Assembly (NCBI RefSeq): GCF_003575965.1 | Contig: NZ_QWJJ01000015.1 | Coordinates: 1 to 64,000 of the forward strand | DNA: 64,000 nucleotides | Direction: 5' to 3' | Origin: Pseudooceanicola sediminis | GTDB lineage: Bacteria; Pseudomonadota; Alphaproteobacteria; Rhodobacterales; Rhodobacteraceae | Part shown: positions 38,962 to 54,827 of the stretch, one piece after another | How the letters are laid out: the number at the start of each line of letters is the position of its first letter | How positions within the stretch are numbered: the first letter of the stretch is position 1 | The notes under the pieces: model-generated | Told to the model about the DNA's origin: nothing | The model's database searches: none | Seen by the model: the letters and a program-made list of their open reading frames with translations, nothing else | Translations under genes and position numbers: made by a program

Positions 38962-39582
38962 TCAGCTGCGCGGATCGGGGCGCACCCAAGGGGCGTTTGC
39001 AAAATATCGGCCTTCGAATGTGGCGATCTGATCCTCGTTTTGCAACGTGGCCGAAAGATCGTCCAAACCGTTCAGCAAACGGTGCTTCAGACCTGCGTCG
39101 ATGTCAAAAGTCATGGTCTCCATTTCGCCGATGCGCAGGGTCTGTGCCGGCAAATCCACTTCGGCATCCTTGCCGGGGTCGGCCTTCAGCGCCGCAAGAA
39201 TCCGCGATAGCTCCGCTTCGGCCAGCTGGATGGTCAGCAATCCGTTCTTGCCCGCGTTCGACCGAAAGATATCGGCGAAGGAAGAGGAAACCACCGCCTG
39301 CACACCGTAATCCAGCAACGCGTAGACGGCGGCCTCGCGGGACGAACCGCAGCCGAAATTGTCACCTGCAACCAGAACAGCAGGGGGCCGGGGCAGGGCG
39401 TTCAGCGCAAAGTCGGAATGCGGTCTGCCAGCGCCGTCAAAGCGCAGATCGTGAAAGCATTGCTCGCCGTAGCCTTCCGAGCGGGATCTGCTCATGAAGC
39501 GGGCCGGGATGATCTGGTCGGTGTCGACGTTGCCAAGGGGCAGCGCGGCGGCGGCACCGCAAAGCGTGGTGATGGGTTTCAT
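38962..39582 (-). CDS. leuD: LeuD-like dehydratase small subunit (aconitase superfamily)
   Basis: The 206-residue small subunit has the swivelling-domain signature: GNVDTDQIIPARFM near the N-terminus, GDNFGCGSSREAAVYALLDYG in the middle (substrate-binding loop) and NGLLTIQLA. Its start overlaps the leuC stop in ATGA. LeuCD normally isomerises 2- and 3-isopropylmalate in leucine synthesis. Here both genes lie beside a tricarboxylate transporter and catabolic genes rather than leuA or leuB, so a catabolic dehydratase of a related dicarboxylate, for instance citraconate/methylmalate, dimethylmaleate or maleate, is a strong alternative. The family is certain; the substrate is not. Confidence 0.88.
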   Translation of the reverse strand: MKPITTLCGAAAALPLGNVDTDQIIPARFMSRSRSEGYGEQCFHDLRFDGAGRPHSDFALNALPRPPAVLVAGDNFGCGSSREAAVYALLDYGVQAVVSSSFADIFRSNAGKNGLLTIQLAEAELSRILAALKADPGKDAEVDLPAQTLRIGEMETMTFDIDAGLKHRLLNGLDDLSATLQNEDQIATFEGRYFANAPWVRPDPRS

Positions 39583-40955
39583 GCCGGTAGCTCCTCTTGC
39601 AGCAGTGTCCGGGCGTCGGTGATCCGCCCGGTCACCGCGGCAGCCGCGACCATTTCGGGGCTCATCAGGTGGGTCCGCGCGCCCGGGCCCTGGCGGCCGC
39701 GGAAATTGCGGTTGGAGGTCGAGGCGCAGCGCTCGCCGGGGGCGACCTGGTCGCCGTTCATGCCGACGCAGAGCGAACACCCGCTGGCGCCCCATTCCGC
39801 GCCGGCATTTCGAAAGATATCCGCGATGCCGCTGTCTTCGGCAGCGCGTGCCACGGCGTCCGAACCGGGCGACACGAGCAGGGGCACGGCGACCCGGCGC
39901 CCCTTCAGCACATTCGCCGCTGCCTGCAGATCGCGCAGCCGGCCGTTGGTACAGGACCCGATGAAAGCCCGATCAACGCCAAGGCCCTCGACGGGCATCC
40001 CGGCGATCAGTCCCATGTAACCCAGTGCATCGGGGTCGGCGTCCTCTGGCACCCGGCCATTGACCGGCGCGACGTGTTCGGGGCTGGTGCCCCAGGTGAC
40101 CATGGGGGCCACCTCTGCGGCCTGCATCTCGAACCTGCGGTCGTAGCGCGCGCCTTCGTCCGGTGTCAGCGTACGCCAATGCGACAGGGCGCTGTCCCAC
40201 GCTGGGCCGGACGGGGCCAGGGGCCGGCCTTTCAGCCAGTCGAAAGTGACCTCGTCGGGCGGCACCAGCCCCGAACGCGCGCCCATCTCGATGGTCATGT
40301 TGCACAGCGTCATGCGCTCTTCCATGCTCAGCGCGGTGATCGCGCTCCCCCCATATTCCACTGCGTGGCCCGTGGCGCCGCCAGTGCCGATGCGCCCGAT
40401 GATGGCAAGCGCCAGGTCCTTGGCCGTGGTGCCCTGCTGCAGCTGCCCGGTCACGTCGATCCGCATCACGGGCGTGGGCTTTTGCCAAAGGCACTGGGTG
40501 GCCATGACATGTGCCACCTCAGACGCGCCGATGCCGAACGCAAAGGCCCCGAAGGCACCGTGCGTGGCGGTGTGGCTGTCGCCACAGACGATGGTCATGC
40601 CGGGAAGGGTCAGCCCCTGTTCAGGCATCGCGACATGCACGATGCCGCGGCGGGGATCCCCGATGTCGAAACTGTCGATCCCGAAATCGGCGGCGTTGCG
40701 GCGCAAGCGAGAGATCATGGTGCCTGTCACATCTGTCGCCCGCGTGCTGCTGGAGGGCGCATAGTGATCGGCCACACCGAACGTCAGTTCGGGGTGTCTC
40801 AGCTGTCGTCCTGCCTCTCGCATCCGGGCAAAGGCATGATGCGACCCTTCATGCAGATAATGCCGGTCGACATAGAGAAGATCGCTGCCGTCATCGTTCA
40901 GGACGCGATGGGAATCGCGGATCTTTTCGATGGTATTGCGGGGCGCCTGTTGCAT
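39579..40955 (-). CDS. leuC: LeuC-like dehydratase large subunit (4Fe-4S)
   Basis: This 458-residue subunit has the aconitase-superfamily iron-sulfur Cys residues: one in FIGSCTNGR and a pair in CSLCVGMNGD. Other signatures are YVDRHYLHEGSHHAF, CGDSHTATHGAFGAFAFGIG (acceptor loop), MTIEMGARSG and SNRNFRGRQG. ATG at 40953-40955 follows AAGGGAGAGG. It forms a minus-strand operon with leuD downstream and tctA upstream (14 bp apart), so all are expressed with the tricarboxylate transporter. The assignment as a biosynthetic isopropylmalate isomerase is doubtful for the reasons given under the small subunit. Confidence 0.9.
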   Translation of the reverse strand: MQQAPRNTIEKIRDSHRVLNDDGSDLLYVDRHYLHEGSHHAFARMREAGRQLRHPELTFGVADHYAPSSSTRATDVTGTMISRLRRNAADFGIDSFDIGDPRRGIVHVAMPEQGLTLPGMTIVCGDSHTATHGAFGAFAFGIGASEVAHVMATQCLWQKPTPVMRIDVTGQLQQGTTAKDLALAIIGRIGTGGATGHAVEYGGSAITALSMEERMTLCNMTIEMGARSGLVPPDEVTFDWLKGRPLAPSGPAWDSALSHWRTLTPDEGARYDRRFEMQAAEVAPMVTWGTSPEHVAPVNGRVPEDADPDALGYMGLIAGMPVEGLGVDRAFIGSCTNGRLRDLQAAANVLKGRRVAVPLLVSPGSDAVARAAEDSGIADIFRNAGAEWGASGCSLCVGMNGDQVAPGERCASTSNRNFRGRQGPGARTHLMSPEMVAAAAVTGRITDARTLLQEELPA

Positions 40956-40968
40956 GGTCCTCTCCCTT

Positions 40969-42480
40969 TCAGGCCTGGTGTCGGGCGCTGTTGGCCCGGC
41001 CATACGCGCGGCTGAACAGCAGGATCGCCATCACGATGACCAGCGTCGCCAGCAGCACCAGCGTAATTGGACGGCCCAGCAGGAACGACGGATCACCACC
41101 GGAAATCTGCCACGACCGTGTCAGTTCCCCTTCGGCCATGGGGCCGATCAACAGACCCACGACCGTGGCCGTCACGGGGTATGAATAGCGCCGCATGACC
41201 CAGCCCAGGGCGCCCGCCCCCGCGACAGTCAGAGGCCCGACCATTGATCCGGTGATCGCGAACGTGCCCATCATCGAAACGGCCAGCACGAACGGGATAA
41301 GGTAGCTCAGCCTGATCTTGACGATCGAGCTCGCCAGGAAGACAAAGATCAGCCCGACGACCAGCAGCAGCACCGCCTGTACGATGTTGCCCAGGATCAG
41401 CGCATAGACGATGTCCATGTTCTCGGAAATGAACCGTGGCCCGCCCGTGACATTGTGCATCGCGAACGCGCCCAGCAAGATCGCCGTTCCCGCGCCACCG
41501 GGCAGCCCAAGGGCAAGCAGCGTGACCATGCCGCCACCTTCGGAGGAGGAATTCGCGGCCTCAGATGCCACGACACCTTCGGGGTTGCCCTTGCCAAAGG
41601 TCGCGGGGGCGTCCGACAGATTCTTGGCGGCGGCATACGAGGCCAGGTTCGCGACCGAGGCCCCGACGCCGGGAATGATGCCGATCAACGTCCCGATGGC
41701 CGACCCCCGCAGGACCTGCGGCCAGCTGCGCAGGGTGGCGGCGGCTCCGGCCAGGATCGGCTTCAGGCTGACGCGGCGCAGGTCGCGGTTGGAAATCAGG
41801 TAATCACGCCCGGCCATGTTGATCATCTCCGACGCGGCGAACAGACCGATCAGGGCCGGAATCGCGGGAATGCCGTCGATCAGGTACATCGAGCCGAAGG
41901 TGCCGCGCATCAGTCCGGTGTCGGAATAGCCGATGGTGCTGATCAATATCCCCAGCACGCCAGCGGCCAGGCCCTTGGCGACAGAACTGTCGTTCAGCAC
42001 CGCAATCAGTAGCAGGCCCCAGATCGCCACGACCAGCATTTCCGTCGGGCCCAGTCGCAACACCCAATTGGCCACTGGACCCACCAGGAACAACAGGATC
42101 ACGTAGCCGAACAACGTGCCCACGACCGATGCGATCAGACCCGCGCCCAGGGCCTCGCCATGCTGCCCCTTGCGCGCCATGGGATACCCGTCAAACGCCG
42201 TGGCCACGGCGGACGAGGTGCCGGGAATGTTCATCAGGATCGCCGGAACCGCGCCGCCAAATCCGCCGCCGGTAAAGATCGCTGTCAGGAACAGGATCGC
42301 GGGCAGGAAATCCATGTACAGGGTCGCCGGCAGGAAAACGGCCATCGCGATCGAGATCGACAGCCCGGGTATCGACCCGAAGACCAGACCGATCAGCAAT
42401 CCTGGGATTACCACCAGCCAGGCCAGTGGATCACTGCCCAGCAGGATCAGGGCATCGGAAAACGCGGTGAAGTCGATCAT
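40969..42480 (-). CDS. tctA: Tripartite tricarboxylate transporter, large membrane subunit
   Basis: The 503-residue protein is an approximately 12-helix TctA permease. The pore-domain motifs are visible: GLVFGSIPGLSISIAMAVFLP, FGGAVPAILMNIPGTSSAVATAFDGYPMA (in two pieces), GTLFGYVILLF and LGLPGGAGTAILLGAF, which repeat the Gly/Pro-rich hairpin of TctA proteins. With TctB and TctC it drives proton/sodium-coupled uptake of a carboxylate. It lies 53 bp downstream of tctB and 14 bp upstream of leuC. Confidence 0.93.
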   Translation of the reverse strand: MIDFTAFSDALILLGSDPLAWLVVIPGLLIGLVFGSIPGLSISIAMAVFLPATLYMDFLPAILFLTAIFTGGGFGGAVPAILMNIPGTSSAVATAFDGYPMARKGQHGEALGAGLIASVVGTLFGYVILLFLVGPVANWVLRLGPTEMLVVAIWGLLLIAVLNDSSVAKGLAAGVLGILISTIGYSDTGLMRGTFGSMYLIDGIPAIPALIGLFAASEMINMAGRDYLISNRDLRRVSLKPILAGAAATLRSWPQVLRGSAIGTLIGIIPGVGASVANLASYAAAKNLSDAPATFGKGNPEGVVASEAANSSSEGGGMVTLLALGLPGGAGTAILLGAFAMHNVTGGPRFISENMDIVYALILGNIVQAVLLLVVGLIFVFLASSIVKIRLSYLIPFVLAVSMMGTFAITGSMVGPLTVAGAGALGWVMRRYSYPVTATVVGLLIGPMAEGELTRSWQISGGDPSFLLGRPITLVLLATLVIVMAILLFSRAYGRANSARHQA

Positions 42481-42533
42481 GGGGCATGTCCTGGAATGTC
42501 ATCGAATGGTCGTGTGCGCGCTGGCGCCCGTGC

Positions 42534-43025
42534 TTACAGAAAGGTGACCGGCAGGCGCACCAGCAAAAGGTCGGTAAAGGCCCATGTGATCAGCGCCGCG
42601 CCGGGCAGGGCAGCCAGCGCAATCTTCCACCACGTCCGTTCGCCCTGCACGAACAGCGCGCCTGCGATGAATAGGGCCGTGGCGATGTCAAAGCCCGCAA
42701 AGGGCGCGGCACAGGCGTACAGGACCGTCAGCACCAGCAGCGCCAGTGGCTTCGCCTCGTCACGCAGCCTGGGGCGCGCGATAGCCATCAGTCCCCTTGG
42801 CGGTTTCAGGTCGGTTATCCCGGCCCAAAGCGCGGCCAGCGCACCGACGATGGCGGCGGGCACGATCAGCAGATAGTCGGTCAGACTGCGCGACACTTCG
42901 ATCACGGACCAGGCGTAAAAGGCCATGACGCCAAGCAGGCAAAGACCGAACACCAGCGCACCCCACCGGCGGCGTGGTGCATCGGGCCTTTCGGCATGAT
43001 CGATCCTCTCGCTGTTCTCAGGCAT
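42534..43025 (-). CDS. tctB: Tripartite tricarboxylate transporter, small membrane subunit
   Basis: The 163-residue protein has four predicted helices (about 25-45, 60-80, 100-130, 135-155) with the WxKI-GA-like arrangement of TctB: a positively charged N-terminal tail, LVFGLCLLGVMAFYAW, LLIVPAAIVGALAALWAG and the tail TWWKIALAALPGAAL. ATG at 43023-43025 follows GGGGAGGGACAG. Downstream of the tctC hairpin and upstream of tctA in the same operon. Confidence 0.88.
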   Translation of the reverse strand: MPENSERIDHAERPDAPRRRWGALVFGLCLLGVMAFYAWSVIEVSRSLTDYLLIVPAAIVGALAALWAGITDLKPPRGLMAIARPRLRDEAKPLALLVLTVLYACAAPFAGFDIATALFIAGALFVQGERTWWKIALAALPGAALITWAFTDLLLVRLPVTFL

Positions 43026-43145
43026 CTGTCCCTCCCCAAAGCGCCATTTCAAGGGCATTGCGTACCGCTGATGCAGCGGCACCACCCCGGCGCGTCTTCA
43101 TTCGTGTTCGGCCCGGATCCGGTTTCAGGCCAACTCCGTTTCAGG

Positions 43146-43238: not shown

Positions 43239-44252
43239 TCAGTTGACCACGTCGGACAGGCCGGACAGCGCCTCGAACGCATCGTCGACCATCTTCTGGC
43301 TCGCCTCGGGGCCGACCCAGTCCGCGCCGATGCCTGCTTCTGCCGCAGCCTCCTTGTAGGAGGCCGAGGTCACGACAGCCTCGTAGGCCGCGACCAGCTT
43401 GGCATGGCGATCGGGGTATTCCGTCTCAAAGGCTGCGGGCGCCAACAGTCCGGTCACGTTGCCGCCGATGATCGGCTGACGCTCGGCGCCCAGGCTTTCC
43501 AGCGCTTCGTTCAGCAGCGGCGCGTCCATGCCGTCCGGGTTGCTGTCGTTGACCACGGCCAGCACACGCAGGCTGTCCTGAATTGCGGCGGCGCCCCGGG
43601 CGGCCAGCACTTCAAAGTCGACCTGGTTTCCCGCCAGGGCGGTACGTAACGGCGCGCCGCCGTCATAGGTGACGAACCGGACATTGTCCTGCGCGATGCC
43701 AAGCGCATCCATGAACACCAGCGTTTGCAGGTGGCCGCCGTTGCCATAGATGATGCCGGACGAAACCTTGCCGGGCTCCTTCATCGCCTCCACCAGTTGC
43801 TCAAAGCTCTGATAGGGGCTGTCCTGGTGCACGGCGACGATGGCATAATCGTTCCACTGGGCATTCAGGAAACTGAAATCTTCCCATTTGACCGGCGCAC
43901 CGCCGACCAGGATGGCATTGGCCAGGTAGGGTGTGGCCTGCATCAGCAACAGGGTATTGCCGTCGGGTTTCTGCCGGCTGACATAGGTCGCCCCCAGCCC
44001 GCCCGCGCCACCGGGGCGGTTGGCCACGGTGACCGGCACGCCCAGTTCCTCGCTCAGCGGTTCGGCCAGCGTGCGCGCCATCCGGTCGGCGGACCCACCG
44101 GCATTGAAGGGCACGACGATCGTGATCGGGTCTTCCGGCCACGCGGTCTGGGCCGCGGCGGGGCCGGCGGCGATCGACAGGCTGGCAAACCCCAAGGTCG
44201 CCGCGGCAAGCGCTAGAAAGCTGCGGCGTTGTGTGCCGGAATATCTGAACAT
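43239..44252 (-). CDS. tctC: Tripartite tricarboxylate transporter substrate-binding protein
   Basis: The 337-residue periplasmic binding protein has a twin-arginine signal (TQRRSFLALAAATLG, followed by a hydrophobic core and AAAQTAWPED) and the Bug-family core ITIVVPFNAGGSADRMARTL, VANRPGGAGGLGATYVSRQ and DGNTLLLMQATP. Bug/TctC proteins bind carboxylates, with the VPFNAGGSAD and GxGG loops lining the ligand pocket. It is the first gene of the operon tctC-tctB-tctA-leuC-leuD and is divergent from a UTRA GntR gene; a palindrome lies between them. The ligand is unknown. Confidence 0.93.
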   Translation of the reverse strand: MFRYSGTQRRSFLALAAATLGFASLSIAAGPAAAQTAWPEDPITIVVPFNAGGSADRMARTLAEPLSEELGVPVTVANRPGGAGGLGATYVSRQKPDGNTLLLMQATPYLANAILVGGAPVKWEDFSFLNAQWNDYAIVAVHQDSPYQSFEQLVEAMKEPGKVSSGIIYGNGGHLQTLVFMDALGIAQDNVRFVTYDGGAPLRTALAGNQVDFEVLAARGAAAIQDSLRVLAVVNDSNPDGMDAPLLNEALESLGAERQPIIGGNVTGLLAPAAFETEYPDRHAKLVAAYEAVVTSASYKEAAAEAGIGADWVGPEASQKMVDDAFEALSGLSDVVN

Positions 44253-44314: not shown

Positions 44315-44330
44315 TATTGTCATGTCAATA
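44315..44330. promoter_or_regulatory. Palindrome TATTG-T-CATG-T-CAATA between tctC and GntR
   Basis: Arms TATTG and CAATA flank TCATGT, with only the T/T pair imperfect. It lies in the 153-bp divergent gap, 76 bp before the GntR start. It fits the two-fold operator of a GntR dimer and would let the regulator control both its own gene and the tct-leu operon. Confidence 0.5.
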
Positions 44331-44405
44331 TAACATTTGGGCTTGGGTTTGATCTGGAATGCCGCTATCCCTGTCGTGGAATGGGAGGAGACGAAGGGGA
44401 ACCCA

Positions 44406-45230
44406 ATGGCAGAAATGTCTCGGCCCGGCCTCGCCGGAGCTGGCAAGAATGGTGACGACGGCCTTTTGCCGAAGCATCACCGCGTCTACCTGATCCTCCG
44501 CCAGGAAATCGAGGACGGGGTCTATGCCGATGCCGCGACCATGGCGGGCGAACTGGCCCTGGCCGAACGGTTCGACGTCTCCAGGATCACGGTTCGCAAG
44601 GCGATGGACAGGCTGACGCAGGAAGGTTGGGTCGAACGGCAGCGCGGCAGGGGCACCTTCGTGCGCACCCGCGCCGCGCCCTCGCATGTCGGGGCCAGCC
44701 TTTCGGGCAATATCGAAAACCTCGTGGCCATGGGGCTCCAGACGGATGTGGAGCTGATCGAGCTGACTTACGCCGTCGCGCCGGGGCCGGTCTGCGCCAT
44801 GATGGGGGCCGCGCCGGGAACGGTGATGCAGCGCGCGGTGCGCGTGCGCAGTCACGAAGGCGTGCCGTTCAGCCACCTGACCACATGGTTGCCCGAAGAC
44901 ATCGGACGCAGCTTTACGGCAGAAGAAATGCAGCGCACCCCGCTGCTACGTCTGATCGAACGCGCCGGCCATCGGATCGCCACCGCCCGTCAGGCGATAA
45001 CGGCCAAGCTGGCCACCCCCGAAGTGGCCCGCCTGCTGGGCATCGAACCGGGCGAGGCCCTGCTGTCGGTGCGCCGTCAGGTCTACGACGATGCCGGCCA
45101 GTTGGTGGAATACATCAGCGGCCTCTACCGCCCCGATACCTATGAACACGAGATGGAATATGACCGCAGCCGCACCTCGGCGGCGGATTTCTGGACGACA
45201 AAAGACACCACGACCGGAGCTGTGACATGA
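44406..45230 (+). CDS. GntR-family regulator, HutC/UTRA type
   Basis: The 274-residue protein has an N-terminal winged helix (about 22-95; HHRVYLILRQEIEDGVY, RFDVSRITVRKAMDRLTQEGW, ERQRGRGTFVR) and a UTRA effector domain (about 100-250; FSHLTTWLPEDIG, LSVRRQVYDDAGQLVEYI). UTRA domains bind small organic ligands. ATG at 44406 follows AAGGGGAA; a longer frame is rejected. Its stop overlaps the ICL-like start in ATGA, so the regulator is coexpressed with the enzyme. It is divergent from the tct-leuCD operon and is probably its controller. Confidence 0.9.
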   Translation: MAEMSRPGLAGAGKNGDDGLLPKHHRVYLILRQEIEDGVYADAATMAGELALAERFDVSRITVRKAMDRLTQEGWVERQRGRGTFVRTRAAPSHVGASLSGNIENLVAMGLQTDVELIELTYAVAPGPVCAMMGAAPGTVMQRAVRVRSHEGVPFSHLTTWLPEDIGRSFTAEEMQRTPLLRLIERAGHRIATARQAITAKLATPEVARLLGIEPGEALLSVRRQVYDDAGQLVEYISGLYRPDTYEHEMEYDRSRTSAADFWTTKDTTTGAVT

Positions 45231-46087
45231 CCAATCTTAAGACCCTGCTGGCAGATGCCGACCGCGGAATCGTGGCCCCCGGGGTCTATGACGCTTTCAC
45301 GGCCTTGCTGGCCGAACAGGCGGGTTTCGACTGCCTGTACCTCTCCGGGGCCTCGATCGCCTACACGCGTCTCGGTCGTCCCGACATCGGCCTCGTCTCG
45401 GTCTCCGAGGTGATCGCCACGATCGAGCTGATCACCGACCGGGTCGGTCTGCCGGTCATCGTCGACGGCGATACCGGCTTTGGCAACGCGCTGAATGTCC
45501 AGCGCACGGTGCGCGGGTTCGAACGCGCAGGCGCACAGGCGATCCAGATGGAGGATCAGAGCTTTCCCAAGCGCTGCGGGCACCTGGCCGGCAAGAAACT
45601 GATCCCGGCAGAGGAGATGGTGGGCAAGATCCGCGCAGCGGTGGATGCCCGTCAGTCCAGCGACTTTCAGATCATCGCCCGCACCGATGCCATCGCCGTC
45701 GAAGATTTCGATGCAGCGCTCGACCGCGCCGAACTCTATGTCGAAGCCGGTGCCGATGTGCTCTTTATCGAAGCACCCCGCTCTCTGGCGCAGATGGATC
45801 AGATCGCCGCGCGCTTCCGCGACCGCCTGCCGCTGCTGGCGAACATGGTCGAGGGCGGCCAGACGCCGATGGGCTCCGCGCAGGAACTGCACGCCAGAGG
45901 GTTCCGCCTCGTCATCTTTCCCGGTGGCATCGCCCGCGCCATGCTGCGTCAGGGCCAGGCCTATTATGCCTCGCTCAGGGACAATGGCAGCAACGCACCG
46001 TTCAAGGCGCGGATGGCGGATTTCGACGAACTGAACCGCGCGATCGGCCTGCCGGAAATGCTGGAAAACGGCGCGCGCTACGAATGA
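45227..46087 (+). CDS. Isocitrate lyase/PEP mutase superfamily enzyme
   Basis: The 286-residue protein has the alpha/beta-barrel superfamily features: YLSGASIAYTRLGRPDIG, VIVDGDTGFGN (metal-binding Asp), EDQSFPKRCGHLAGKKL (KRCGH at 115-119, the lyase loop with catalytic Cys), IIARTDAIAVEDFDAALDRA and LANMVEGGQTP. The KRCGH loop is that of 2-methylisocitrate and 2,3-dimethylmalate lyases. Cleavage of a 2-hydroxy-dicarboxylate to pyruvate or glyoxylate plus a small acid is expected; oxaloacetate decarboxylase activity is a common alternative. Coexpressed with the UTRA regulator. Substrate unknown, but the LeuCD-type neighbour would supply a methylmalate-like acid. Confidence 0.9.
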   Translation: MTNLKTLLADADRGIVAPGVYDAFTALLAEQAGFDCLYLSGASIAYTRLGRPDIGLVSVSEVIATIELITDRVGLPVIVDGDTGFGNALNVQRTVRGFERAGAQAIQMEDQSFPKRCGHLAGKKLIPAEEMVGKIRAAVDARQSSDFQIIARTDAIAVEDFDAALDRAELYVEAGADVLFIEAPRSLAQMDQIAARFRDRLPLLANMVEGGQTPMGSAQELHARGFRLVIFPGGIARAMLRQGQAYYASLRDNGSNAPFKARMADFDELNRAIGLPEMLENGARYE

Positions 46088-46151: not shown

Positions 46152-46760
46152 TCAGGCCAGGATCATGTCTGTCGCCTGCGCGCAGGTCATGATCTCCGTC
46201 ACCGATCCCAGCGATACCAGCGTGGCATCGTGCACCTCCTGCCGAAAGGCCGCGCAACCGTCCGACAACATGATCGTGTGAAGCCCGCGCAGATGCGCAT
46301 CGCGCAATGTGCTGGCCACACCGCCATTTGTGACGATCCCGCCAACGATCAGCGTATCCGCCCCGATATGGCGCAGGATGTATTCCAGGCGGGTCTGGTA
46401 GAATGCCGAGTAGTTGATCTTTTCGACGGTGAAATCCGCCGGTTGCAGGGTGTCGACAAGGTGATGCCCCCATGCGCCCGGCTCGAAATCGCCCCGTCCC
46501 AGAAAGGGGCGCAGCTCCTTCAGGTGCGGCGCAATCAGCGGATCACGCCCCTGGTGCGGCACCAGCGTGAACTGGGCAGAAACATAGCTGCCCCCCTTCG
46601 CGCGAAGGGCATCTGCCACCGGACGGATACGGCCGGGCAGGGGCAGAATCTCGTCTGCGGTCTGCCCTGCACGCCCATAGGCCCCCTTCGGATCCAGAAA
46701 ATCGTTCTGAAGGTCGATTGTCAGCAGGGCGGTGCGGGCAGGGTCAAACGCGTGGCTCAT
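46152..46760 (-). CDS. Isochorismatase-fold hydrolase with Gly in the cysteine site
   Basis: This 202-residue Rossmann-like hydrolase has LLTIDLQNDFLDP (Asp16), DFTVEKINYSAFYQT (Lys114) and GIVTNGGVASTLRDA. In cysteine hydrolases (nicotinamidase, carbamoylsarcosine amidase, maleamate amidase) the last reads TNxCVxxT and supplies the nucleophile. Here that position is Gly147. True isochorismatases such as EntB keep Asp and Lys but also have Gly there. An amidase mechanism is therefore unlikely; hydrolysis of an enol ether or another non-amide bond, or an inactive binding role, is more plausible. Good ribosome site AAGGAG. It is downstream of a GntR gene on the same strand. Confidence 0.88.
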   Translation of the reverse strand: MSHAFDPARTALLTIDLQNDFLDPKGAYGRAGQTADEILPLPGRIRPVADALRAKGGSYVSAQFTLVPHQGRDPLIAPHLKELRPFLGRGDFEPGAWGHHLVDTLQPADFTVEKINYSAFYQTRLEYILRHIGADTLIVGGIVTNGGVASTLRDAHLRGLHTIMLSDGCAAFRQEVHDATLVSLGSVTEIMTCAQATDMILA

Positions 46761-46832: not shown

Positions 46833-47663
46833 TCAGACCTGCGGCGCAGAACCGGGTATCCAGGACCGGCCATTGTCGCCTTCGACCCGCTGCATCGAAA
46901 TCTCGTAGTGATAAAGTTCGGGGCGATAGAGAACCCGGATGAATTCGACAGGCCGCCCGCCGGCATCAAAGACCACCCGCCGCGAATCGATCAGCGGCGC
47001 GCCCATGGGCACGCCCAATGCCGACGCCGATGTCCCGTCCGCCAGCGTCGCGCTGATCGTCTGTGTGGCCGAGGCGACGGCAACACCCGCCTGCTCCAAC
47101 TGGATCAGCACCGGGGTCTGCGATGGTTTCTGCCCCAGGATCATCGCTCCGATGTCTTCTGGCACCCAGACCTCCAGATACGACATCGGCTGATCGGCAA
47201 GGTAACGCACCCGTTGCGTCAGCAGGGCGCGGTCGCCGCCGCCCAGCCGCAGCTTGGCGGCGGCTTCCTGGCTTGCGATGACCATATCGGAAAACAGCAC
47301 CCGCACCGAGGTGTGGCGGCCCATCTGGCCCACGGTTTCCAACAGGCCGTCGATGCTCGAACTCATCGGTTGCGGGGGCAGGCGGTCCGACACCAGCGTG
47401 CCGCGTCCACGCTGCCGCACCACCAGCCCACTGTCGGCAAGTTCGTTCAGCGCCCGCTTGGCGGTGATCCGCGAAACGTCGAAGGTATCGCACAGCTCGG
47501 CCTCGCCCATCACCTTCTGGCCCGGCCGCAGCGCACCGGCATGGATCTGGTTTCGCAACAGCAGAAAAAGCTGTTGGTACAGCGGGACCGGAGAGGCCGA
47601 ATCCAGCGTGGCGTTATTTTGGGCTGTCACGTTCCGTCCCGCGAATGTTGTCTGGCCTGTCAT
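46833..47663 (-). CDS. GntR-family regulator, UTRA type (second copy in the block)
   Basis: The 276-residue regulator has a winged helix (about 26-95; SPVPLYQQLFLLLRNQI, DTFDVSRITAKRALNELADS, VRQRGRGTLVS) and a UTRA domain (about 110-260; YLEVWVPEDIGAMI, RRVVFDAGGRPVEFIRVLYRPE). It resembles the other GntR of the block but is clearly diverged. ATG at 47661-47663 is used; a TTG 36 bp upstream is less likely because a palindrome lies across it. It is divergent from the FAD monooxygenase and two 20-bp operators occupy the gap, so it probably controls both sides, including the isochorismatase-like gene behind it. Confidence 0.9.
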   Translation of the reverse strand: MTGQTTFAGRNVTAQNNATLDSASPVPLYQQLFLLLRNQIHAGALRPGQKVMGEAELCDTFDVSRITAKRALNELADSGLVVRQRGRGTLVSDRLPPQPMSSSIDGLLETVGQMGRHTSVRVLFSDMVIASQEAAAKLRLGGGDRALLTQRVRYLADQPMSYLEVWVPEDIGAMILGQKPSQTPVLIQLEQAGVAVASATQTISATLADGTSASALGVPMGAPLIDSRRVVFDAGGRPVEFIRVLYRPELYHYEISMQRVEGDNGRSWIPGSAPQV

Positions 47664-47679
47664 CTTTAACGTTGACTCA

Positions 47680-47731
47680 TTGATATATCTATATACCAAT
47701 TAAATGACCTATTGATATATCATTATATCAA
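47680..47731. promoter_or_regulatory. Two 20-bp GntR operator palindromes, 32 bp apart
   Basis: TTGATATA-TCTA-TATACCAA (47680-47699, one mismatch) and TTGATATA-TCAT-TATATCAA (47712-47731, perfect) lie in the divergent gap between the GntR gene and the FAD monooxygenase gene. Their centres are 32 bp apart, three helical turns, so bound dimers would lie on one DNA face. AT content is much higher than in the surroundings. Confidence 0.75.
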
Positions 47732-47778: not shown

Positions 47779-48951
47779 GTGGCGAACAGGACAATACTCA
47801 TCGTCGGAGCGGGCCCTGTCGGGCTTACCCTTGCGTGGCAACTGGTCAGCGCCGGGTTCGACGTGAAGGTTTTCGAGGCAGAGAGCGAAATTTCCGACCA
47901 GTTGCGCGCCTCGACCTTTCACCCGCCGACACTGGATATGTTCGATGCCTCCGGAATCACGGCCAAGCTGATCGCTGCGGGCCGGATCACGCCCACCTGG
48001 CAGATCCGTATGCACGAAACGGGAGAGCGCGCCGAATTCGACCTTGGCGTGCTGGCCGATGACACGGCGCACCCCTATCGGCTGCAATGCCGCCAGGCGA
48101 ACCTCAGCCGTGCCCTGCTGGCGATGCTGCCCGCAGATACGGTGCACTTCGGCGCAGAGGTCAGCGCGGTATCCCAGGACACAAGGGGCGTCAGTGTCGT
48201 CGCGAACGGCGAAACGCATCGGGGCTGGGCGGTGGTCGGCTGCGACGGCGCGCGCAGCCTGGTGCGCCACGCCGTCGGCGCGGATTTCGAGGGCACGACC
48301 TATCCTGAAAGCACCATTCTGGTGACGACGCATTTCCCCTTCGATCAGCACCTCGATGACCTGTCCGGCGTGAACTACATCTGGAAACCGGGCGGCACCT
48401 ACTCCCTGCTGCGCCTGCCCGATCTCTGGCGCGTCTCGCTGCACCCAGAAGACGGGCAAAGCCCCGAAGACGCGCTGAGCGATGCCTCCATCCGGGCCCA
48501 GACCCTTGCCGTGGTGCCGGAGGCGGGCAATATCGACATCGTCGAAAAGCGTATCTACCGCGTGCACCGCCGTGTCGCCTCGACCTATCGCAAGGGGATG
48601 GTCTTTCTGTGCGGGGATGCGGCCCACCTCAATTCACCCAAGGGCGGGATGGGGCTGAACGGGGGCGTGCACGATGCCTTCAACCTGGCGGAAAAGCTGG
48701 CCGGGGTGGCCGCCGGCGCGGACGACGCGCTGCTGGATCGCTATGAGGCGCAGCGGCGCCCGGTGGCCCGCGATGACATCCTCGCCCAGGCAGATGAAAA
48801 CCGCCGCCGCATGAACACGACCGACCAGACCGAACGACTGACCCACCTGCGCAACCTCCAGGCCATTGCCGCCGACCCGGCAAAGGCGCGTGACTTCCTG
48901 TTGCGCTCGTCCATGATCAGCGGCCTGCGCCGCACGCGTGAACTGGCATGA
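47779..48951 (+). CDS. FAD-dependent group A monooxygenase, GTG start
   Basis: The 390-residue flavoprotein has the class A hydroxylase motifs: ILIVGAGPVGLTLAWQL (GxGxxG, residues about 6-22), VVGCDGARSLVRHA (DG fingerprint) and MVFLCGDAAHLNSPKGGMGLNGGV with an N-terminal GD fingerprint. It uses NAD(P)H, FAD and O2, typically to hydroxylate an aromatic or heteroaromatic ring; some members also open a pyridine ring. A GTG at 47779 follows AAGGAAAG. The operators upstream suggest GntR control. The aldehyde dehydrogenase follows 178 bp later. No ring-cleavage dioxygenase lies nearby, so the product is not obvious. Confidence 0.9.
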   Translation: MANRTILIVGAGPVGLTLAWQLVSAGFDVKVFEAESEISDQLRASTFHPPTLDMFDASGITAKLIAAGRITPTWQIRMHETGERAEFDLGVLADDTAHPYRLQCRQANLSRALLAMLPADTVHFGAEVSAVSQDTRGVSVVANGETHRGWAVVGCDGARSLVRHAVGADFEGTTYPESTILVTTHFPFDQHLDDLSGVNYIWKPGGTYSLLRLPDLWRVSLHPEDGQSPEDALSDASIRAQTLAVVPEAGNIDIVEKRIYRVHRRVASTYRKGMVFLCGDAAHLNSPKGGMGLNGGVHDAFNLAEKLAGVAAGADDALLDRYEAQRRPVARDDILAQADENRRRMNTTDQTERLTHLRNLQAIAADPAKARDFLLRSSMISGLRRTRELA

Positions 48952-49129
48952 CGGTGCACCCCCGCCTGCCTGTTGTCCTGTTTGCCTGTGCGGGCTGTCG
49001 CACGCCCCGCCGCGCCCGCAGACCTCGCCGGCCCCATCCATTTCCCGCCGTCGGAAACAGCGGTCCCTGCCACGGGGCGCGCCCAGTCTTCGCACGGCGG
49101 CGCCCACCTGCCATGAAAGACCCGAGACT

Positions 49130-50659: not shown

Positions 50660-51670
50660 ATGTCTTATATCAGAACATTCGCCATGTCCGCCGCGCTTGC
50701 GGTGGCCGCGCTTGCCGCGCCCGTCCAGGCCCAGGAAAGCATCAAGGTCGGCACCTTCGTGCCGGAACAATCCACCGGCGTGGCCCAGGTCATCAAGCCC
50801 TGGCTCGAGGCCGTCCAGGCCGAGGCCGGTGATACCGTGCGCATGCAACCCTTCTGGGGCGGCACGCTGGGCAAGGACCCCTACAAGCAATTCGAACTGG
50901 TACAGAACGGTGTCGCGGATGCGACCTGGGTGCTGCCGGGCTATACGGCGGGCCAGTTCCCGGAAATGGGCATCTTCGAACTGCCCTTCCTGTTCCGCAC
51001 GGCACAGGAGGCGTCTCTGGTCGGCTGGAAGCTTAACGAGATGGGCCTGCTGACGGGCCTCGACGGGGTTCACATGGTGGGCTTCTTTGCCGCCGAACCC
51101 AACGCCATCTTCCTCAGCACGCCGGTCGACAGCCTGGAAGGGCTGGCCAACCTCAAGATCCGCTCGGCAGGCTCGATTCAGGCCAAGTGGCTTGAAAGCC
51201 TCGGCGCCGCGCCGCAAACCCTGTCGTCGGCCGAATTCAACGAAGGCCTGTCGCGTGGCACGGTCGATGGCGCCATTCAGGGCTGGACGGGGATGAAGAC
51301 CTTCAAGTCGCTGCCGCTGGTCGAACAGGCCATCGAGGCCCCCGCCGGCGCGATCCCCTTCCTGCTGCTGATGAACGAACGCAAATGGGAAAGCCTCTCG
51401 CCCGAGTTGCAGGAGATTGTCATGAAGCATGGCGGTGCCGCCTTCGCCGAGGCCGGCGGCAACGCCTATGCCTCTGCCGGGGCCGCGATCCGCGAAGAGG
51501 TCGAGGCCGAGGGCCGGATCTCTCTCATGACCTTCACCGACGAAGAGCTGGCCAGCTACGAAGATTCCGTCCAGCCGATCTACGACGACTGGATCGCGGC
51601 GACCCCGAACGGGCAGGCCGTCTATGATGCAACGGTAAAGCTGCTCGGCGAAATCCGCGGCAAGGACTGA
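50660..51670 (+). CDS. dctP: TRAP transporter substrate-binding protein DctP
   Basis: The 336-residue periplasmic protein has a Sec signal peptide (YIRTFAMSAALAVAALAAPVQAQ) and the DctP core: SIKVGTFVPEQS, WGGTLGKDPYKQFELVQNG, ELPFLFRTAQEA, NLKIRSAGSI with the family's ligand-binding Arg, and DGAIQGWTGMK. It binds a carboxylate for the DctQM permease. It starts the transporter part of the operon, 40 bp after the aldehyde dehydrogenase. Confidence 0.93.
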   Translation: MSYIRTFAMSAALAVAALAAPVQAQESIKVGTFVPEQSTGVAQVIKPWLEAVQAEAGDTVRMQPFWGGTLGKDPYKQFELVQNGVADATWVLPGYTAGQFPEMGIFELPFLFRTAQEASLVGWKLNEMGLLTGLDGVHMVGFFAAEPNAIFLSTPVDSLEGLANLKIRSAGSIQAKWLESLGAAPQTLSSAEFNEGLSRGTVDGAIQGWTGMKTFKSLPLVEQAIEAPAGAIPFLLLMNERKWESLSPELQEIVMKHGGAAFAEAGGNAYASAGAAIREEVEAEGRISLMTFTDEELASYEDSVQPIYDDWIAATPNGQAVYDATVKLLGEIRGKD

Positions 51671-51683
51671 AGGACAGGGCGCC

Positions 51684-52229
51684 ATGACCACCTCTGCAAG
51701 ACTTGACCGCATCACCCAGAAGGCCGCCGTGATCGGCTTCATGGGCCTGGTGATCATGGCGCTGCTGATCACCTGGGACGGGGCAGCGCGCTATATGTGG
51801 CTGCCCCGGATCTCGGGCTTTTCGGACTACGGCGAAGTCGTCTTTCCCATCGTCATCGCCAGCTGCTTTCCCGCCGGGCTGCTGCGCCAGACCAACGTCA
51901 CCGTACGGGTGTTCGGCAATCTCGGCGGGCCGCGTGTCCATGCCGCGCTGGAAACCTTCGGCGCGGTGCTGACGCTGGCCTTTTTCGGCCTGCTGACCTG
52001 GCAGTTCATCCGCCTCACGGGCCAGTTCGAGGCAGGCGGCCGCACCACCAGGACAATCGGCGTGATGCTGGCTCCCTGGTGGTACGTGACCACCGCCATC
52101 ATGGCCATTTGCGTCCCGGTTCAGGCCTTTGTCGCCTGGTCCTGGCTGGTGGCCACCGTCAAGGGCGATCTGCCCGATATCGCCAGCCTTCGCGACGACG
52201 CCGAAGAGCTGATGGAACTGGAAGGCTGA
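51684..52229 (+). CDS. dctQ: TRAP transporter small permease DctQ
   Basis: The 181-residue protein has four predicted helices (about 15-40, 55-75, 90-115, 130-155) with the DctQ pattern: DRITQKAAVIGFMGLV, FSDYGEVVFPIVIAS and MLAPWWYVTTAIMAI. It is 14 bp downstream of dctP and 2 bp upstream of dctM, so it is cotranslated. It forms the scaffold that joins the binding protein and the channel. Confidence 0.9.
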   Translation: MTTSARLDRITQKAAVIGFMGLVIMALLITWDGAARYMWLPRISGFSDYGEVVFPIVIASCFPAGLLRQTNVTVRVFGNLGGPRVHAALETFGAVLTLAFFGLLTWQFIRLTGQFEAGGRTTRTIGVMLAPWWYVTTAIMAICVPVQAFVAWSWLVATVKGDLPDIASLRDDAEELMELEG

Positions 52230-52230
52230 C

Positions 52231-53544
52231 ATGCTGAGCGATCCCTTTACCACCGGCCTTCTGGGTCTTCTGGCCATGTTCGTGCTGATCTTCCTTCAGG
52301 TGCCCGTGGGCATCGCCATGGGGATCGTCGGCGTCGTCGGTTGCGGGCTGATCATCGGTTTCGCCCCGGCGCTGACGCTGCTGGCGACCGAACCGTCCTC
52401 CTCGATGGCGTCGGAAAGCTTTGCCGTCGTCGCCATGTTCCTGCTGATGGGCAACCTGGCCCACGTCGGCGGGCTGTCGCGCGAACTCTACCGCCTCGCG
52501 CATGTCTACCTCGGTCACAAGCGCGGCGGGCTGATCTTTGCGACCATCGGCGCCTGCGCGGGCTTCGGCGCGATCTGCGGCTCTTCTGTCGCCACGGCGG
52601 CGACAATGGCCCGCATCGCCCTGCCCGAGATGCTGGAGCGCGGCTATGCCAAGTCGCTGGCCGCGGGGTCCATCGCGGCGGGCGGAACGCTGGGCATGAT
52701 CGTTCCGCCCTCCGTCGTCATGATCCTCTATGCCATCCTGACCGAGAATTCGATCATCGCGCTGTTCCTCGCGGCCATCGTGCCCGGCCTGCTGGCGGTC
52801 CTGGTGTACTTTGTCGCGGTCTACTTCGTCGTCCGGGCCAATCCAGACGCCGCGCCGGTCGGACCCAAGGCCAGCTGGCGCGAACGCCGACAGGTCACCG
52901 GGCAAGGCTGGGCGGTGGTGCTTCTGGCCGTCATCGTCTCGGGCGGCATCTATTCGGGGATCTTCACGGTGTCCGAAGCGGCGTCGGTCGGGGCGACCGT
53001 GGCGCTGCTGCTGGCCCTCTTCCGGCGGCGCCTGACGGTGAGAAAGTTCCTCGCGGCCCTCGGCGATACCGCGGCCAATACCGGCATGATCTTCATCATG
53101 ATCATCGGCGCCTCGGTGTTTTCCTACTTCGCCACGCTGTCCGGCCTACCCATGGCCACGGTCGACTGGATTCAGAGCCTGGCCCTGCCGCCGCTGCTGG
53201 TGCTCTGCCTGCTGATGGTCTTCTACCTGATCCTCGGCGCGATCTTCGACACCATCGCGGCCATGGTGCTGACACTGCCCTTCGTCTACCCGCTGATCAT
53301 CGGGCTGGGCTACGACCCGGTCTGGTGGGGCGTGATCAACATCGTGGTGATCGAACTGGGCATGATCACACCGCCCATCGGCATCAACGTCTTCGTCCTG
53401 CACGGCATGGCGCGCGACCTGCCGCTCTCGACGATCTTCCGGGGCGTCGTCCCCTTCATCATCGCTGACGTGGTGCGACTGGTCATCCTGATCCTGTTCC
53501 CACCCCTCAGCCTCTGGCTCCCCGGAGTACTCGGATGGCTCTGA
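52231..53544 (+). CDS. dctM: TRAP transporter large permease DctM
   Basis: The 437-residue protein is a 12-helix transporter of the DctM family. Visible: VPVGIAMGIVGVVGC, GFGAICGSSVATAATMARIALPEM, GSIAAGGTLGMIVPPSVVMILYA and ITPPIGINVFVLHGMA. The two GxG/P-rich hairpins are the sodium/substrate sites. It overlaps the next gene by 10 bases (53535-53544), so the racemase-like protein is coupled to the transporter. Confidence 0.93.
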   Translation: MLSDPFTTGLLGLLAMFVLIFLQVPVGIAMGIVGVVGCGLIIGFAPALTLLATEPSSSMASESFAVVAMFLLMGNLAHVGGLSRELYRLAHVYLGHKRGGLIFATIGACAGFGAICGSSVATAATMARIALPEMLERGYAKSLAAGSIAAGGTLGMIVPPSVVMILYAILTENSIIALFLAAIVPGLLAVLVYFVAVYFVVRANPDAAPVGPKASWRERRQVTGQGWAVVLLAVIVSGGIYSGIFTVSEAASVGATVALLLALFRRRLTVRKFLAALGDTAANTGMIFIMIIGASVFSYFATLSGLPMATVDWIQSLALPPLLVLCLLMVFYLILGAIFDTIAAMVLTLPFVYPLIIGLGYDPVWWGVINIVVIELGMITPPIGINVFVLHGMARDLPLSTIFRGVVPFIIADVVRLVILILFPPLSLWLPGVLGWL

Positions 53545-54314
53545 AAGAATATGGCAACGCAGGCACGATCGGGGTCCTGACCCCGCAGGCCAACACCACC
53601 GTCGAACCCGAACTCTGGGCGCTGCTGCCCGCGCACTGGTCCATGCTCAACGCGCGCCTGACATCCGACAAGGGCACGATCGAGGACCGGCTGGTCGACT
53701 ACACCACCAAGTTCGCAGAAACCTCGGGCCAGTTCGCCAATGCCCCGGTCGACGTGCTGACAGCGGCCTGCACCGGGGCCTCCTACCTGATCGGCCAACA
53801 GGCCGAGGCGCGCCTCGTGGACCAGGTGCAGGCCCGGCGCAATCTGCCCTTCCTGACCGCCGCGCTGGCGTCTGTTGCGGCCCTCAGGGCGATGGGCGCC
53901 AGAAAGATCGCCCTGCTGACCCCCTATCCCGAAAGCCTGAATGTCCATTCGACACCGTACTGGGAAAGCTTCGGTTTCCAGGTCGTGGCCAAGGCCGGGC
54001 CCGAACTGGAAACCAGCGCGTTCCATCCGATCTATGCAATGACGGGGCCGGGCGTCCTGGCGTCCTATCGCAGGCTTTCGGCAGACAGCGGCGCGGATGC
54101 GGTTCTCATGCTCGGTACCGGCATGGCCACGCTGCACCCCATGATCGCGGGCCACGCCGAAGGGCTGATCCCGGCGATTTCATGCAACGTGGCGCTGGTC
54201 TGGGCCGCCGTGCAAAAGACCACGTGGGACAAGGTGTCGGACGGTGATTTGCAGGCATGGATCACCGGCAGGCAATGGGCGGACCGGCTGAACGTGATGT
54301 ACCCCGCACCCTGA
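53535..54314 (+). CDS. Asp/Glu racemase superfamily protein (maleate isomerase-like) lacking one Cys
   Basis: The 259-residue protein has the fold of Asp/Glu racemases, maleate isomerases and arylmalonate decarboxylase: GTIGVLTPQANTTVEPEL near the N-terminus, LTAACTGASYLIG (Cys79, first catalytic position), and LMLGTGMATLHPMI. In maleate isomerases this last segment usually reads LSCTNLRTL and contains the second catalytic Cys; here the place is Gly194. SCNVALVWAAV follows later (Cys217). It therefore has one-sided cysteine chemistry or a different reaction, possibly decarboxylation. It overlaps dctM, so it likely acts on the transported acid. Confidence 0.85.
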   Translation: MALKEYGNAGTIGVLTPQANTTVEPELWALLPAHWSMLNARLTSDKGTIEDRLVDYTTKFAETSGQFANAPVDVLTAACTGASYLIGQQAEARLVDQVQARRNLPFLTAALASVAALRAMGARKIALLTPYPESLNVHSTPYWESFGFQVVAKAGPELETSAFHPIYAMTGPGVLASYRRLSADSGADAVLMLGTGMATLHPMIAGHAEGLIPAISCNVALVWAAVQKTTWDKVSDGDLQAWITGRQWADRLNVMYPAP

Positions 54315-54440
54315 TCCGCCCACCCCCACAGCCCCGCGTACGACCCCCGCCAGCCGCCCCTGCGCCGACCGGCGGCAGATCGGTCATGGCGCGCCCTGCC
54401 GCGACGGGATAACACTGTCGCGCCACGACGGAGGGATGCC

Positions 54441-54827
54441 ATGACGCCGGAAACATTGTCGCAGTTTTACCTGGGCTATATCGATTGCCTCAACACGCAG
54501 GACTGGGCGCGCCTCGGCCTCTACGTGCACGGCGCTGTCGAACACAACGACAGGCCGCTTGGGCTGGACGGCTATCGGCAGATGCTCGAAAACGACTTTC
54601 GTGCCATCCCGGACCTGACGTTCAACATCGCCAAGCTCGCTTCGCAGCCGCCCTGCATCGCCGCACGGCTGGCCTTCGACTGTACCCCGGTGGGCACGCT
54701 TTTCGATCTGCCGGTCGACGGGCGGCGCGTGCAGTTCAGCGAAAATGTCTTTTACGAGGTCGCCGAGGGGCGCATCAGATGGGTCTGGTCCGTCATCGAC
54801 ACTGCGGCAATCGCGGCGCAGCTCTGA
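54441..54827 (+). CDS. SnoaL-like (NTF2-fold) protein
   Basis: The 128-residue protein has the NTF2-like cone seen in SnoaL ester cyclases: FYLGYIDCLNTQDWARLGLYVH, a central VEHNDRPLGLDGYRQML, NDFRAIPDLTFNI and ENVFYEVAEGRIRWVWSVID. It may catalyse a small ring, lactone or isomerisation step, or bind a ligand only. The key acid-base residues of SnoaL (His, Asp) are plausible in VEHND and PVDG but not proven. ATG follows CGGAGGG. It is separated by 126 bp from the racemase-like gene and may or may not be cotranscribed. Confidence 0.8.
   Translation: MTPETLSQFYLGYIDCLNTQDWARLGLYVHGAVEHNDRPLGLDGYRQMLENDFRAIPDLTFNIAKLASQPPCIAARLAFDCTPVGTLFDLPVDGRRVQFSENVFYEVAEGRIRWVWSVIDTAAIAAQL

What the first reader, a model, noticed from the sequence alone, without database searches (positions are those of the whole stretch)
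38962..54827. Catabolic block with two carboxylate uptake systems: candidate new pathway
A TTT transporter with LeuCD-like dehydratase; UTRA-GntR with an ICL-like lyase; UTRA-GntR with an isochorismatase-fold hydrolase; an FAD monooxygenase, ALDH, TRAP transporter, racemase-fold protein and SnoaL protein. Dehydratase plus KRCGH lyase fits methylmalate or 2,3-dimethylmalate cleavage, as in nicotinate fermentation, and the racemase/isochorismatase folds recall the maleate/maleamate steps of aerobic nicotinate breakdown. No ring-cleavage dioxygenase is present, but some group A FAD enzymes open pyridine rings. I know of no described pathway with this set.
Basis: inference. Interest (0 to 1): 0.82.

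Follow-up and report, generated by a model that had tools for sequence, protein, structure and literature searches.

The report
Alkylmaleate-type catabolic gene block
A bacterium carries a block of genes that probably breaks a ring compound down to a branched malate-like acid and splits it; relatives hold much the same end steps, and the starting compound is still unknown.

Summary
The block is real: 15 of its 16 genes recur in the same order in two Pseudooceanicola genomes; SnoaL does not. It holds two units. A: LeuCD-like, TctABC, UTRA-GntR, ICL-fold lyase. B: UTRA-GntR, FAD monooxygenase, ALDH, TRAP, racemase-fold protein. They are linked: of 19 family genomes with the FAD enzyme, 14 have the lyase, against 51 of 295 overall. 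Canonical leuCDB lies elsewhere on the contig; the block's LeuD reads SSREAAVY, not SSREHAPW, in a separate clade. The lyase keeps KRCGH, and its active-site half is nearest petal death protein, by a small margin. In other bacteria the lyase and the isochorismatase-fold gene sit with HyuAB and this or another aconitase-type hydratase. Best reading: B oxidises a ring compound towards an alkyl-substituted maleate, which A hydrates and cleaves to a 2-oxoacid and a carboxylate. The isochorismatase-fold protein lacks the amidase cysteine in 48 of 48 rows, which argues against the maleamate/nicotinate route. Substrate unresolved; pyrroles, pyrrolinones or maleimides are the boldest candidates.

The parts
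38962..39582 (-). LeuD-like small subunit of the proposed alkylmaleate hydratase; motif SSREAAVY instead of SSREHAPW
39579..40955 (-). LeuC-like large subunit (aconitase family)
   Evidence: TIGR00170 575.6 bits, cut-off 560.25; the canonical LeuC scores 787.3
40969..42480 (-). TctA permease of a tripartite tricarboxylate transporter (named by similarity)
   Evidence: no NCBIfam hit
42534..43025 (-). TctB small permease (named by similarity and position; open frame extends to 43085)
   Evidence: no NCBIfam hit
43239..44252 (-). TctC periplasmic binding protein (named by similarity)
   Evidence: no NCBIfam hit
44317..44336 (+). operator-like palindrome between tctC and gntR1
   Evidence: within 3 mismatches in 7 of 7 TTT loci scanned
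44406..45230 (+). GntR-UTRA regulator 1 (open frame begins at 44337)
45227..46087 (+). ICL/PEP-mutase superfamily lyase, KRCGHL and NMVEGG motifs; proposed alkylmalate lyase
46152..46760 (-). isochorismatase-fold hydrolase without the nucleophilic Cys (Asp and Lys kept, Cys to Gly)
46833..47663 (-). GntR-UTRA regulator 2 (open frame extends to 47699)
47704..47723 (-). second place in the window within 5 mismatches of the unit-A operator, in the gntR2/fad gap
47779..48951 (+). group A FAD monooxygenase, closest solved relatives HspB and PnpA
48948..49116 (+). what is left of an SDR gene of about 720-740 bases that is intact in most relatives looked at; only its extreme ends are recognisable
   Evidence: last 31 residues 39-42% identical, E 0.011 to 0.32; DNA alignment to L028 covers the start codon and the last codons
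49130..50620 (+). aldehyde dehydrogenase, closest NCBIfam models HpaE (485 of 638 bits) and 2-hydroxymuconic semialdehyde DH (425 of 693 bits), both under cut-off
50660..51670 (+). DctP TRAP binding protein
51684..52229 (+). DctQ TRAP small permease (by position and conservation)
   Evidence: (no hit)
52231..53544 (+). DctM TRAP large permease
53535..54314 (+). Asp/Glu-racemase-fold protein, AMDase/maleate isomerase branch, two Cys

Best explanation
A two-unit catabolic system. Unit B imports an organic acid by TRAP. A group A FAD monooxygenase hydroxylates its ring, an aldehyde is oxidised by the ALDH, a Cys-less isochorismatase-fold hydrolase probably hydrolyses an enol-ether or enamine intermediate, and a two-Cys maleate-isomerase-like enzyme sets the double bond, giving an alkyl-substituted maleate. 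Unit A hydrates this acid with a dedicated LeuCD-like enzyme to an alkylmalate, and an ICL-superfamily lyase cleaves it without CoA to a 2-oxoacid and a carboxylate. The TTT transporter can supply the acid directly. Shown here: gene content, separation from the leucine genes, motif changes, conservation and co-occurrence. Inferred: every reaction, and the order of the steps in unit B.
For: Canonical leuC, leuD and leuB elsewhere on the contig; LeuC and LeuD there score far higher on the leucine models (787 and 265 bits against 576 and 177). LeuD rows with AAVY/GAVY are separated from HAPW LeuD at 100/98, with a TTT subclade at 100/98 and a hyu subclade at 100/99. Of 30 LeuD loci fetched, 25 read SSREHAPW and 5 SSREAAVY; the 5 are all in genomes with the lyase. 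Of 49 lyase rows at 55% identity or more, 49 have KRCGHL and 48 NMVEGG; petal death protein has NMIEGG, E. coli PrpB NITEFG. Of 295 family genomes, 51 have the lyase at E<=1e-100; of the 19 with fad at E<=1e-60, 14 have it (3.3 expected, P=2.5e-8), and of the 6 with fad at E<=1e-120 (a bound set after seeing the list) 6 have it. Of 22 genomes with fad reached through loci, 17 have it (at least two are also in the family sample). In Sphingomonas ERG5 a LeuCD follows fad-rac-aldh and precedes a different cleavage pair, HMGL-like lyase and CoA-transferase III. A plain malate would not need a lyase (general knowledge). TTT, LeuCD and lyase form a unit apart from fad in G263, G678 and G679.
Against: No substrate or product is known. 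Over its whole length the lyase is nearest PrpB (295 bits, cut-off 354), and in the active-site half petal death protein leads one methylisocitrate lyase by only 30.4 to 29.1 bits. LeuC and LeuD pass NCBIfam 3-isopropylmalate dehydratase models. Five of 22 genomes with fad have no lyase at E<=1e-100: G689 has one cut by a contig end, G683's contig ends just after hyuA, G693 is the Sphingomonas with the CoA-type lyase, and G695 and G697 are plain misses. Five of 19 in the family sample also lack it. HyuAB and the fumarate-reductase-like FAD enzyme of the other cluster type are not in the block, so the two types may not share a substrate. Two regulators suggest two inducers.
Confidence: 0.5

Rival explanations
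1. Units A and B are independent pathways that happen to lie side by side: A uses imported citraconate-, citramalate- or dimethylmalate-type acids, B degrades an unrelated ring acid.
For: A occurs in G263, which has no fad at E<=1e-60, and lies apart from B in G678 and G679. Two regulators; the site before fad differs from the A operator pattern at 5 of 20 bases.
Against: Strong co-occurrence of fad with the lyase even where the genes are not linked. G233 carries LeuC, HyuAB, isochorismatase-fold gene and lyase near rac-fad-aldh, with a HAD and an epimerase gene between. The isochorismatase-fold gene lies beside gntR2-fad in L029 and L030 and beside the lyase in 25 of 30 family loci. Only two places in 64 kb are within 5 mismatches of the A operator, one in each divergent promoter; 100 shuffles gave 0.03 on average.
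Confidence: 0.22
2. Nicotinate or another pyridine is degraded through 2,5-dihydroxypyridine, maleamate and maleate, or through dimethylmaleate as in nicotinate fermentation.
For: FAD enzyme nearest HspB, a pyridine hydroxylase; racemase fold of the maleate isomerase branch; LeuCD plus lyase resemble dimethylmaleate hydratase and dimethylmalate lyase (recalled).
Against: Isochorismatase-fold protein lacks the amidase Cys in 48 of 48 rows. No dihydroxypyridine dioxygenase recognised in the block. A pyridine ring gives a five-carbon chain while LeuCD and lyase act on a four-carbon diacid chain (inference). A plain maleate would not need a lyase.
Confidence: 0.12
3. The lyase is a methylisocitrate or related tricarboxylate lyase and unit A degrades tricarboxylates such as methylaconitate.
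For: Whole-length best hits are PrpB proteins; a methylisocitrate lyase is a close second in the active-site half; the transporter class is named for tricarboxylates; the FAD enzyme of the related clusters resembles, among others, tricarballylate dehydrogenase.
Against: Below the PrpB cut-off (295 of 354 bits); NMVEGG instead of NITEFG at a segment that I recall as binding the succinate half.
Confidence: 0.13

Closest known systems
Dimethylmaleate hydratase (DmdAB) and 2,3-dimethylmalate lyase of nicotinate fermentation (recalled)
   Same: aconitase-family hydratase followed by an ICL-superfamily lyase without CoA
   Different: no mutase, enamidase or reductase gene of that pathway recognised in the block; the upstream part is oxygen-dependent; the fermentation enzymes themselves were not compared here (only solved entry 3fa3, named 2,3-dimethylmalate lyase: 174 bits whole-length, 28.5 bits in the active-site half)
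Petal death protein, PDB 1zlp
   Same: best match of the active-site half, NMIEGGKTP versus NMVEGGQTP
   Different: the margin is small and the whole protein is nearer PrpB; its substrates are recalled
LeuCD isopropylmalate isomerase
   Same: fold, subunit split, model hits over cut-off
   Different: SSREHAPW replaced by SSREAAVY, separate clade, catabolic neighbours, canonical copy elsewhere
HspB (7da9) and PnpA (6ain)
   Same: group A FAD hydroxylase of about 390-420 aa
   Different: partners differ; no dioxygenase recognised nearby
Maleate isomerase (4fq5, 2xed) and arylmalonate decarboxylase
   Same: fold; two Cys as recalled for maleate isomerase
   Different: far below the NCBIfam AMDase cut-off (59 of 225 bits); solved maleate isomerases match at 35-47 bits only
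Caprolactamase/N-methylhydantoinase-like clusters (HyuAB)
   Same: in many relatives the lyase and isochorismatase-fold gene, with this or another aconitase-type hydratase, lie with HyuAB
   Different: the block itself has no HyuAB

Membership tests
3-isopropylmalate isomerase (LeuCD) | model score over cut-off | tested here: met
   LeuC 575.6 of 560.25 bits, LeuD 176.8 of 116.25 bits
3-isopropylmalate isomerase (LeuCD) | LeuD motif SSREHAPW and leuB context | tested here: not met
   SSREAAVY; canonical leuC, leuD and leuB lie at C10:136966-142141
Methylisocitrate lyase PrpB | equivalog score | tested here: not met
   295.1 bits against cut-off 354.4
ICL/PEP-mutase superfamily lyases | KRCGH motif | tested here: met
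   49 of 49 rows of at least 55% identity
2,3-dimethylmalate/alkylmalate lyase | cleaves alkylmalates | not testable with these tools
   only motif resemblance to 1zlp
Maleamate amidase (NicF-type cysteine hydrolase) | nucleophilic Cys | tested here: not met
   Gly at the RutB Cys position in 48 of 48 rows
Maleate isomerase | two Cys at the active site | tested here: met
   CTGASY and SCN in 15 of 15 rows of at least 57% identity, and in the window protein; equivalence to the catalytic Cys is recalled
Maleate isomerase | isomerises maleate | not testable with these tools
   solved relatives match at 35-47 bits
Aerobic nicotinate pathway | 2,5-dihydroxypyridine dioxygenase | tested here: inconclusive
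   none recognised among the block's genes; the whole genome was not searched for it

The most novel reading that the evidence does not exclude
The block and the HyuAB-type cluster are variants of one undescribed pathway for alkyl-substituted pyrroles, pyrrolinones or maleimides. These rings carry exactly the four-carbon alkylated chain that the hydratase and lyase need, so end products of chlorophyll, haem and bilins (methylethylmaleimide, hematinic acid, BOX compounds) are candidate substrates. It would be a genetic route for their use by marine and soil bacteria.
Probability: 0.12. Interest if true: 0.87.

Novelty: new variant of a known kind. Interest (0 to 1): 0.6.

Why it matters
The lyase is present (E<=1e-100) in 51 of 295 family genomes, and relatives lie on plasmids of soil bacteria such as Azospirillum, Neorhizobium and Paraburkholderia. 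The Cys-less isochorismatase-fold gene lies beside it in 25 of 30 family loci fetched. In public records the parts are called 3-isopropylmalate dehydratase (with a leucine-synthesis note), isocitrate lyase/PEP mutase family protein, oxaloacetate decarboxylase, cysteine hydrolase or RutB. If the reading holds, several of these names mislead, a short motif tells the two kinds of LeuD apart, and a class of branched or ring-derived acids has a testable route into central metabolism.

Tried and rejected
Leucine synthesis as the role of LeuCD: rejected, because canonical leuC, leuD and leuB lie on the same contig. Maleamate amidase: rejected on the missing Cys. SnoaL as a part: rejected, no match in the 28 mapped loci; the HyuAB-type clusters carry a small protein with a SnoaL_2 domain (2 of 3 tested), in one case with a tautomerase domain called as well, which may be coincidence. 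Furan fatty acids: considered, no paper on them in the listing. MHPCO-type ring opening: no MHPCO named among the 60 best solved matches shown of 93. A HyuAB of a second kind (43-45%) in the five TTT-type genomes with fad lies with ABC-transporter genes and not with lyase or LeuCD. Island at the tRNA: no exact repeat. G+C rises from about 58% to about 65% at the left edge, not followed up. The A operator had no site within 5 mismatches in 16 of 17 HyuAB-type loci scanned; L151 had one with 4, just upstream of its GntR gene.
Full report
What is there. The window lies at C10:1-64000 of a 4.44 Mb genome. Between 38962 and 54827 there are 16 genes in the arrangement leuD-leuC-tctA-tctB-tctC (minus), gntR1-lyase (plus), isochorismatase fold-gntR2 (minus), fad-aldh-dctP-dctQ-dctM-rac-snoaL (plus). 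Family searches support the names, except that TctABC and DctQ have no NCBIfam hit and are named by the translation, by conservation and, for TctABC, by the annotated Roseivivax plasmid.

Is it a unit? One scan of genome contigs with the FAD protein gave 40 loci; the 28 at 51% identity or more (L028-L055) were mapped. L028 (P. marinus) and L031 (P. spongiae) have 15 of the 16 genes in the same order; snoaL has no match in the 28, some of which are short. L029 and L030 have isoch-gntR2-fad-aldh-dctPQM-rac without unit A in the stretch. L032, L033, L035, L037, L038 and L052 have gntR2-fad-aldh-dctPQM, and all but L052 also rac. An SDR gene lies between fad and aldh (or dctP) in 8 of 11 loci examined (one of them given to Pfam). 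In the window only its extreme ends are recognisable in the 169 bases left; none was seen in that gap in L031, L034 and L036.

Two cluster types. Type T has TTT-LeuCD-lyase: window, L028, L031, G678 (L136), G679 (L137), G263 (L106); the Roseivivax plasmid (L119) shows TTT, GntR and lyase with no leuCD annotated in the stretch read. Type H has LeuCD, GntR, HyuB, HyuA, the isochorismatase-fold gene and the lyase in varying order, and often a FAD enzyme like fumarate reductase, urocanate reductase or tricarballylate dehydrogenase. A small conserved gene heads several of these operons: seven such proteins were read (one of them, in L123, lies further down its cluster), three given to Pfam; SnoaL_2 was called in two, Tautomerase in one. 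HyuA of 58-67% identity was found in 14 of 23 genomes searched; the other nine are the five type-T genomes (G000, G677-G680; 43-45% paralogues at best), G696 (43%), G692 (37%), and G693 and G697 (nothing at E<=1e-100). In G678 and G679 the TTT module lies elsewhere and has no isochorismatase-fold gene; that gene stays beside gntR2-fad. In Sphingomonas ERG5 the order is fad-rac-aldh-leuC-leuD-HMGL lyase-CoA transferase III. In four type-H loci (L104, L144, L146, L151) the hydratase is of another aconitase type with SSREQA.

Co-occurrence. In the family sample (295 genomes in both searches, same handles) 51 reach E<=1e-100 with the lyase (counted). Of the 19 with fad at E<=1e-60, 14 are among them; misses are G048, G101, G183, G232 and G235; expected 3.3, hypergeometric P 2.5e-8. 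Of the 6 with fad at E<=1e-120, a bound chosen after seeing the list, all 6 are: P 2.1e-5, or 1.2e-4 without the window's genome. I also gave 22 of the 28 mapped loci as genomes to (L036, L042, L047, L053-L055 left out); several of these hold fad without the rest of unit B. Of 22, 20 have a lyase-fold match at E<=1e-60 and 17 at E<=1e-100. The five misses are G683, G689, G693, G695 and G697; G689 has a lyase cut by a contig end and G683's contig ends just after hyuA. A Fisher test of 17/22 against 51/295 gives 8e-9, but the sets share at least two genomes (equal contig lengths and positions) and relatives are not independent, so all these values are descriptive.

Hydratase. The genome has canonical leuC, leuD and leuB at C10:136966-142141, with leucine-model scores of 787, 265 and 474 bits against cut-offs of 560, 116 and 353; the block's LeuC and LeuD score 576 and 177. 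LeuD of the block reads SSREAAVY where the canonical copy reads SSREHAPW. Of 30 LeuD loci fetched out of 61 genomes searched, 25 are HAPW and 5 AAVY; the five lie in G000, G024, G027, G041 and G052, all with the lyase. In 23 type-H stretches read, 17 are AAVY (two genomes counted twice), 1 GAVY, 4 SSREQA and 1 gave no match to the pattern. The tree of 59 rows, some of them near-duplicates of one locus, separates AAVY/GAVY from HAPW/HAVW at 100/98; the Sphingomonas row is a very long branch, so its place is unsure, and the SSREQA rows are not in the tree.

Lyase. Of 49 rows of at least 55% identity, 49 read KRCGHL and 48 NMVEGG; 12 rows of lower identity read PKKCGH and mostly NMVSGG. Whole-length it is nearest PrpB but under that model's cut-off. 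A 72-residue active-site piece is best matched by petal death protein 1zlp at 30.4 bits, then methylisocitrate lyases at 29.1 and 28.8, 4iqd (named carboxyvinyl-carboxyphosphonate phosphorylmutase) 28.6, 2,3-dimethylmalate lyase 3fa3 28.5, and E. coli PrpB 1mum 24.6 (that 1mum is from E. coli is recalled). The NMxEGG signature is shared with 1zlp; 1mum has NITEFG. The biochemistry of petal death protein is recalled; the five papers listed were not read.

Isochorismatase fold. In 48 aligned rows (45 distinct genes by my count) Asp and Lys are kept and the position of the RutB cysteine is Gly. True isochorismatases have Gly there too (recalled). This argues against an amidase and for acid-catalysed hydrolysis of an enol ether or enamine (inference).

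Racemase fold. In 15 of 15 rows of at least 57% identity both Cys are kept, as recalled for maleate isomerase and unlike arylmalonate decarboxylase. Among the more distant rac proteins L046 lacks the second Cys, L047, L049 and L051 have it shifted, and L048 lacks the first.

Regulation. The 20-base palindrome ATGTTATGTCAATATAACAT is found within 3 mismatches between tctC and gntR1 in 7 of 7 TTT loci scanned. In the 64 kb window only two places are within 5 mismatches: that one (2 mismatches) and the gntR2/fad gap (5 mismatches); L028 and L031 show the same pair. Over 100 dinucleotide shuffles of the window the mean is 0.03 places; of 2000 shuffles of the A+T-rich 115-base gap itself, 10 held a site. 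It was not found in 16 of 17 HyuAB-type loci; L151 has one with 4 mismatches just upstream of its GntR gene.

Interpretation. A lyase after the hydratase makes sense if the alcohol carbon is tertiary, so that malate dehydrogenase cannot act; the HMGL plus CoA transferase pair in Sphingomonas points the same way (inference from recalled chemistry of those families). Hence an alkylmaleate as the node. What unit B starts from is open. A five-membered N-ring carries the right four-carbon chain, and HyuAB, related to N-methylhydantoinase, 5-oxoprolinase and caprolactamase, fits type H; but type T has no such HyuAB near it, so a ring without nitrogen is not excluded. [quoted passage not shown]

Literature. 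Ten searches of the held library listed no paper that, by title and opening of the abstract, deals with this gene set; (hydantoinase, isochorismatase, isopropylmalate dehydratase, isocitrate lyase) and one search returned none. I saw the listings, passages of PMC7318184 and the abstract and outline of PMC7356986. Subscription papers are mostly not held, so novelty is not proven.

Noticed in passing
L105 / G000:C6:17762-27000: Same genome, a second set: FAD monooxygenase paralogue (46%), AMDase-family protein, SDR, AidB-like MBL-fold protein, EutA/AMDase-like protein, PEP-mutase-fold lyase (42%), isochorismatase-fold protein and another SDR; overlapping sets in L099, L102, L113, L114, L115.
   Followed up: partly
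L109:3833-4387 and like genes in HyuAB clusters: Small conserved protein at the head of HyuAB operons; in L109 Pfam calls a tautomerase domain followed by SnoaL_2.
   Followed up: partly
window 48948-49116: Remains of an SDR gene between fad and aldh.
   Followed up: yes
L046:9974-18017: Sphingomonas ERG5 operon-like run fad-rac-aldh-leuC-leuD-HMGL-CoA transferase III.
   Followed up: partly
window 54441-54827: SnoaL-fold gene next to the block that is not conserved with it.
   Followed up: yes
L121/L152, Roseomonas haemaphysalidis plasmid p546-2: One plasmid carries a fad (57%) with a racemase-fold gene (43%) about 3 kb away and, elsewhere, a HyuAB-type cluster.
   Followed up: partly
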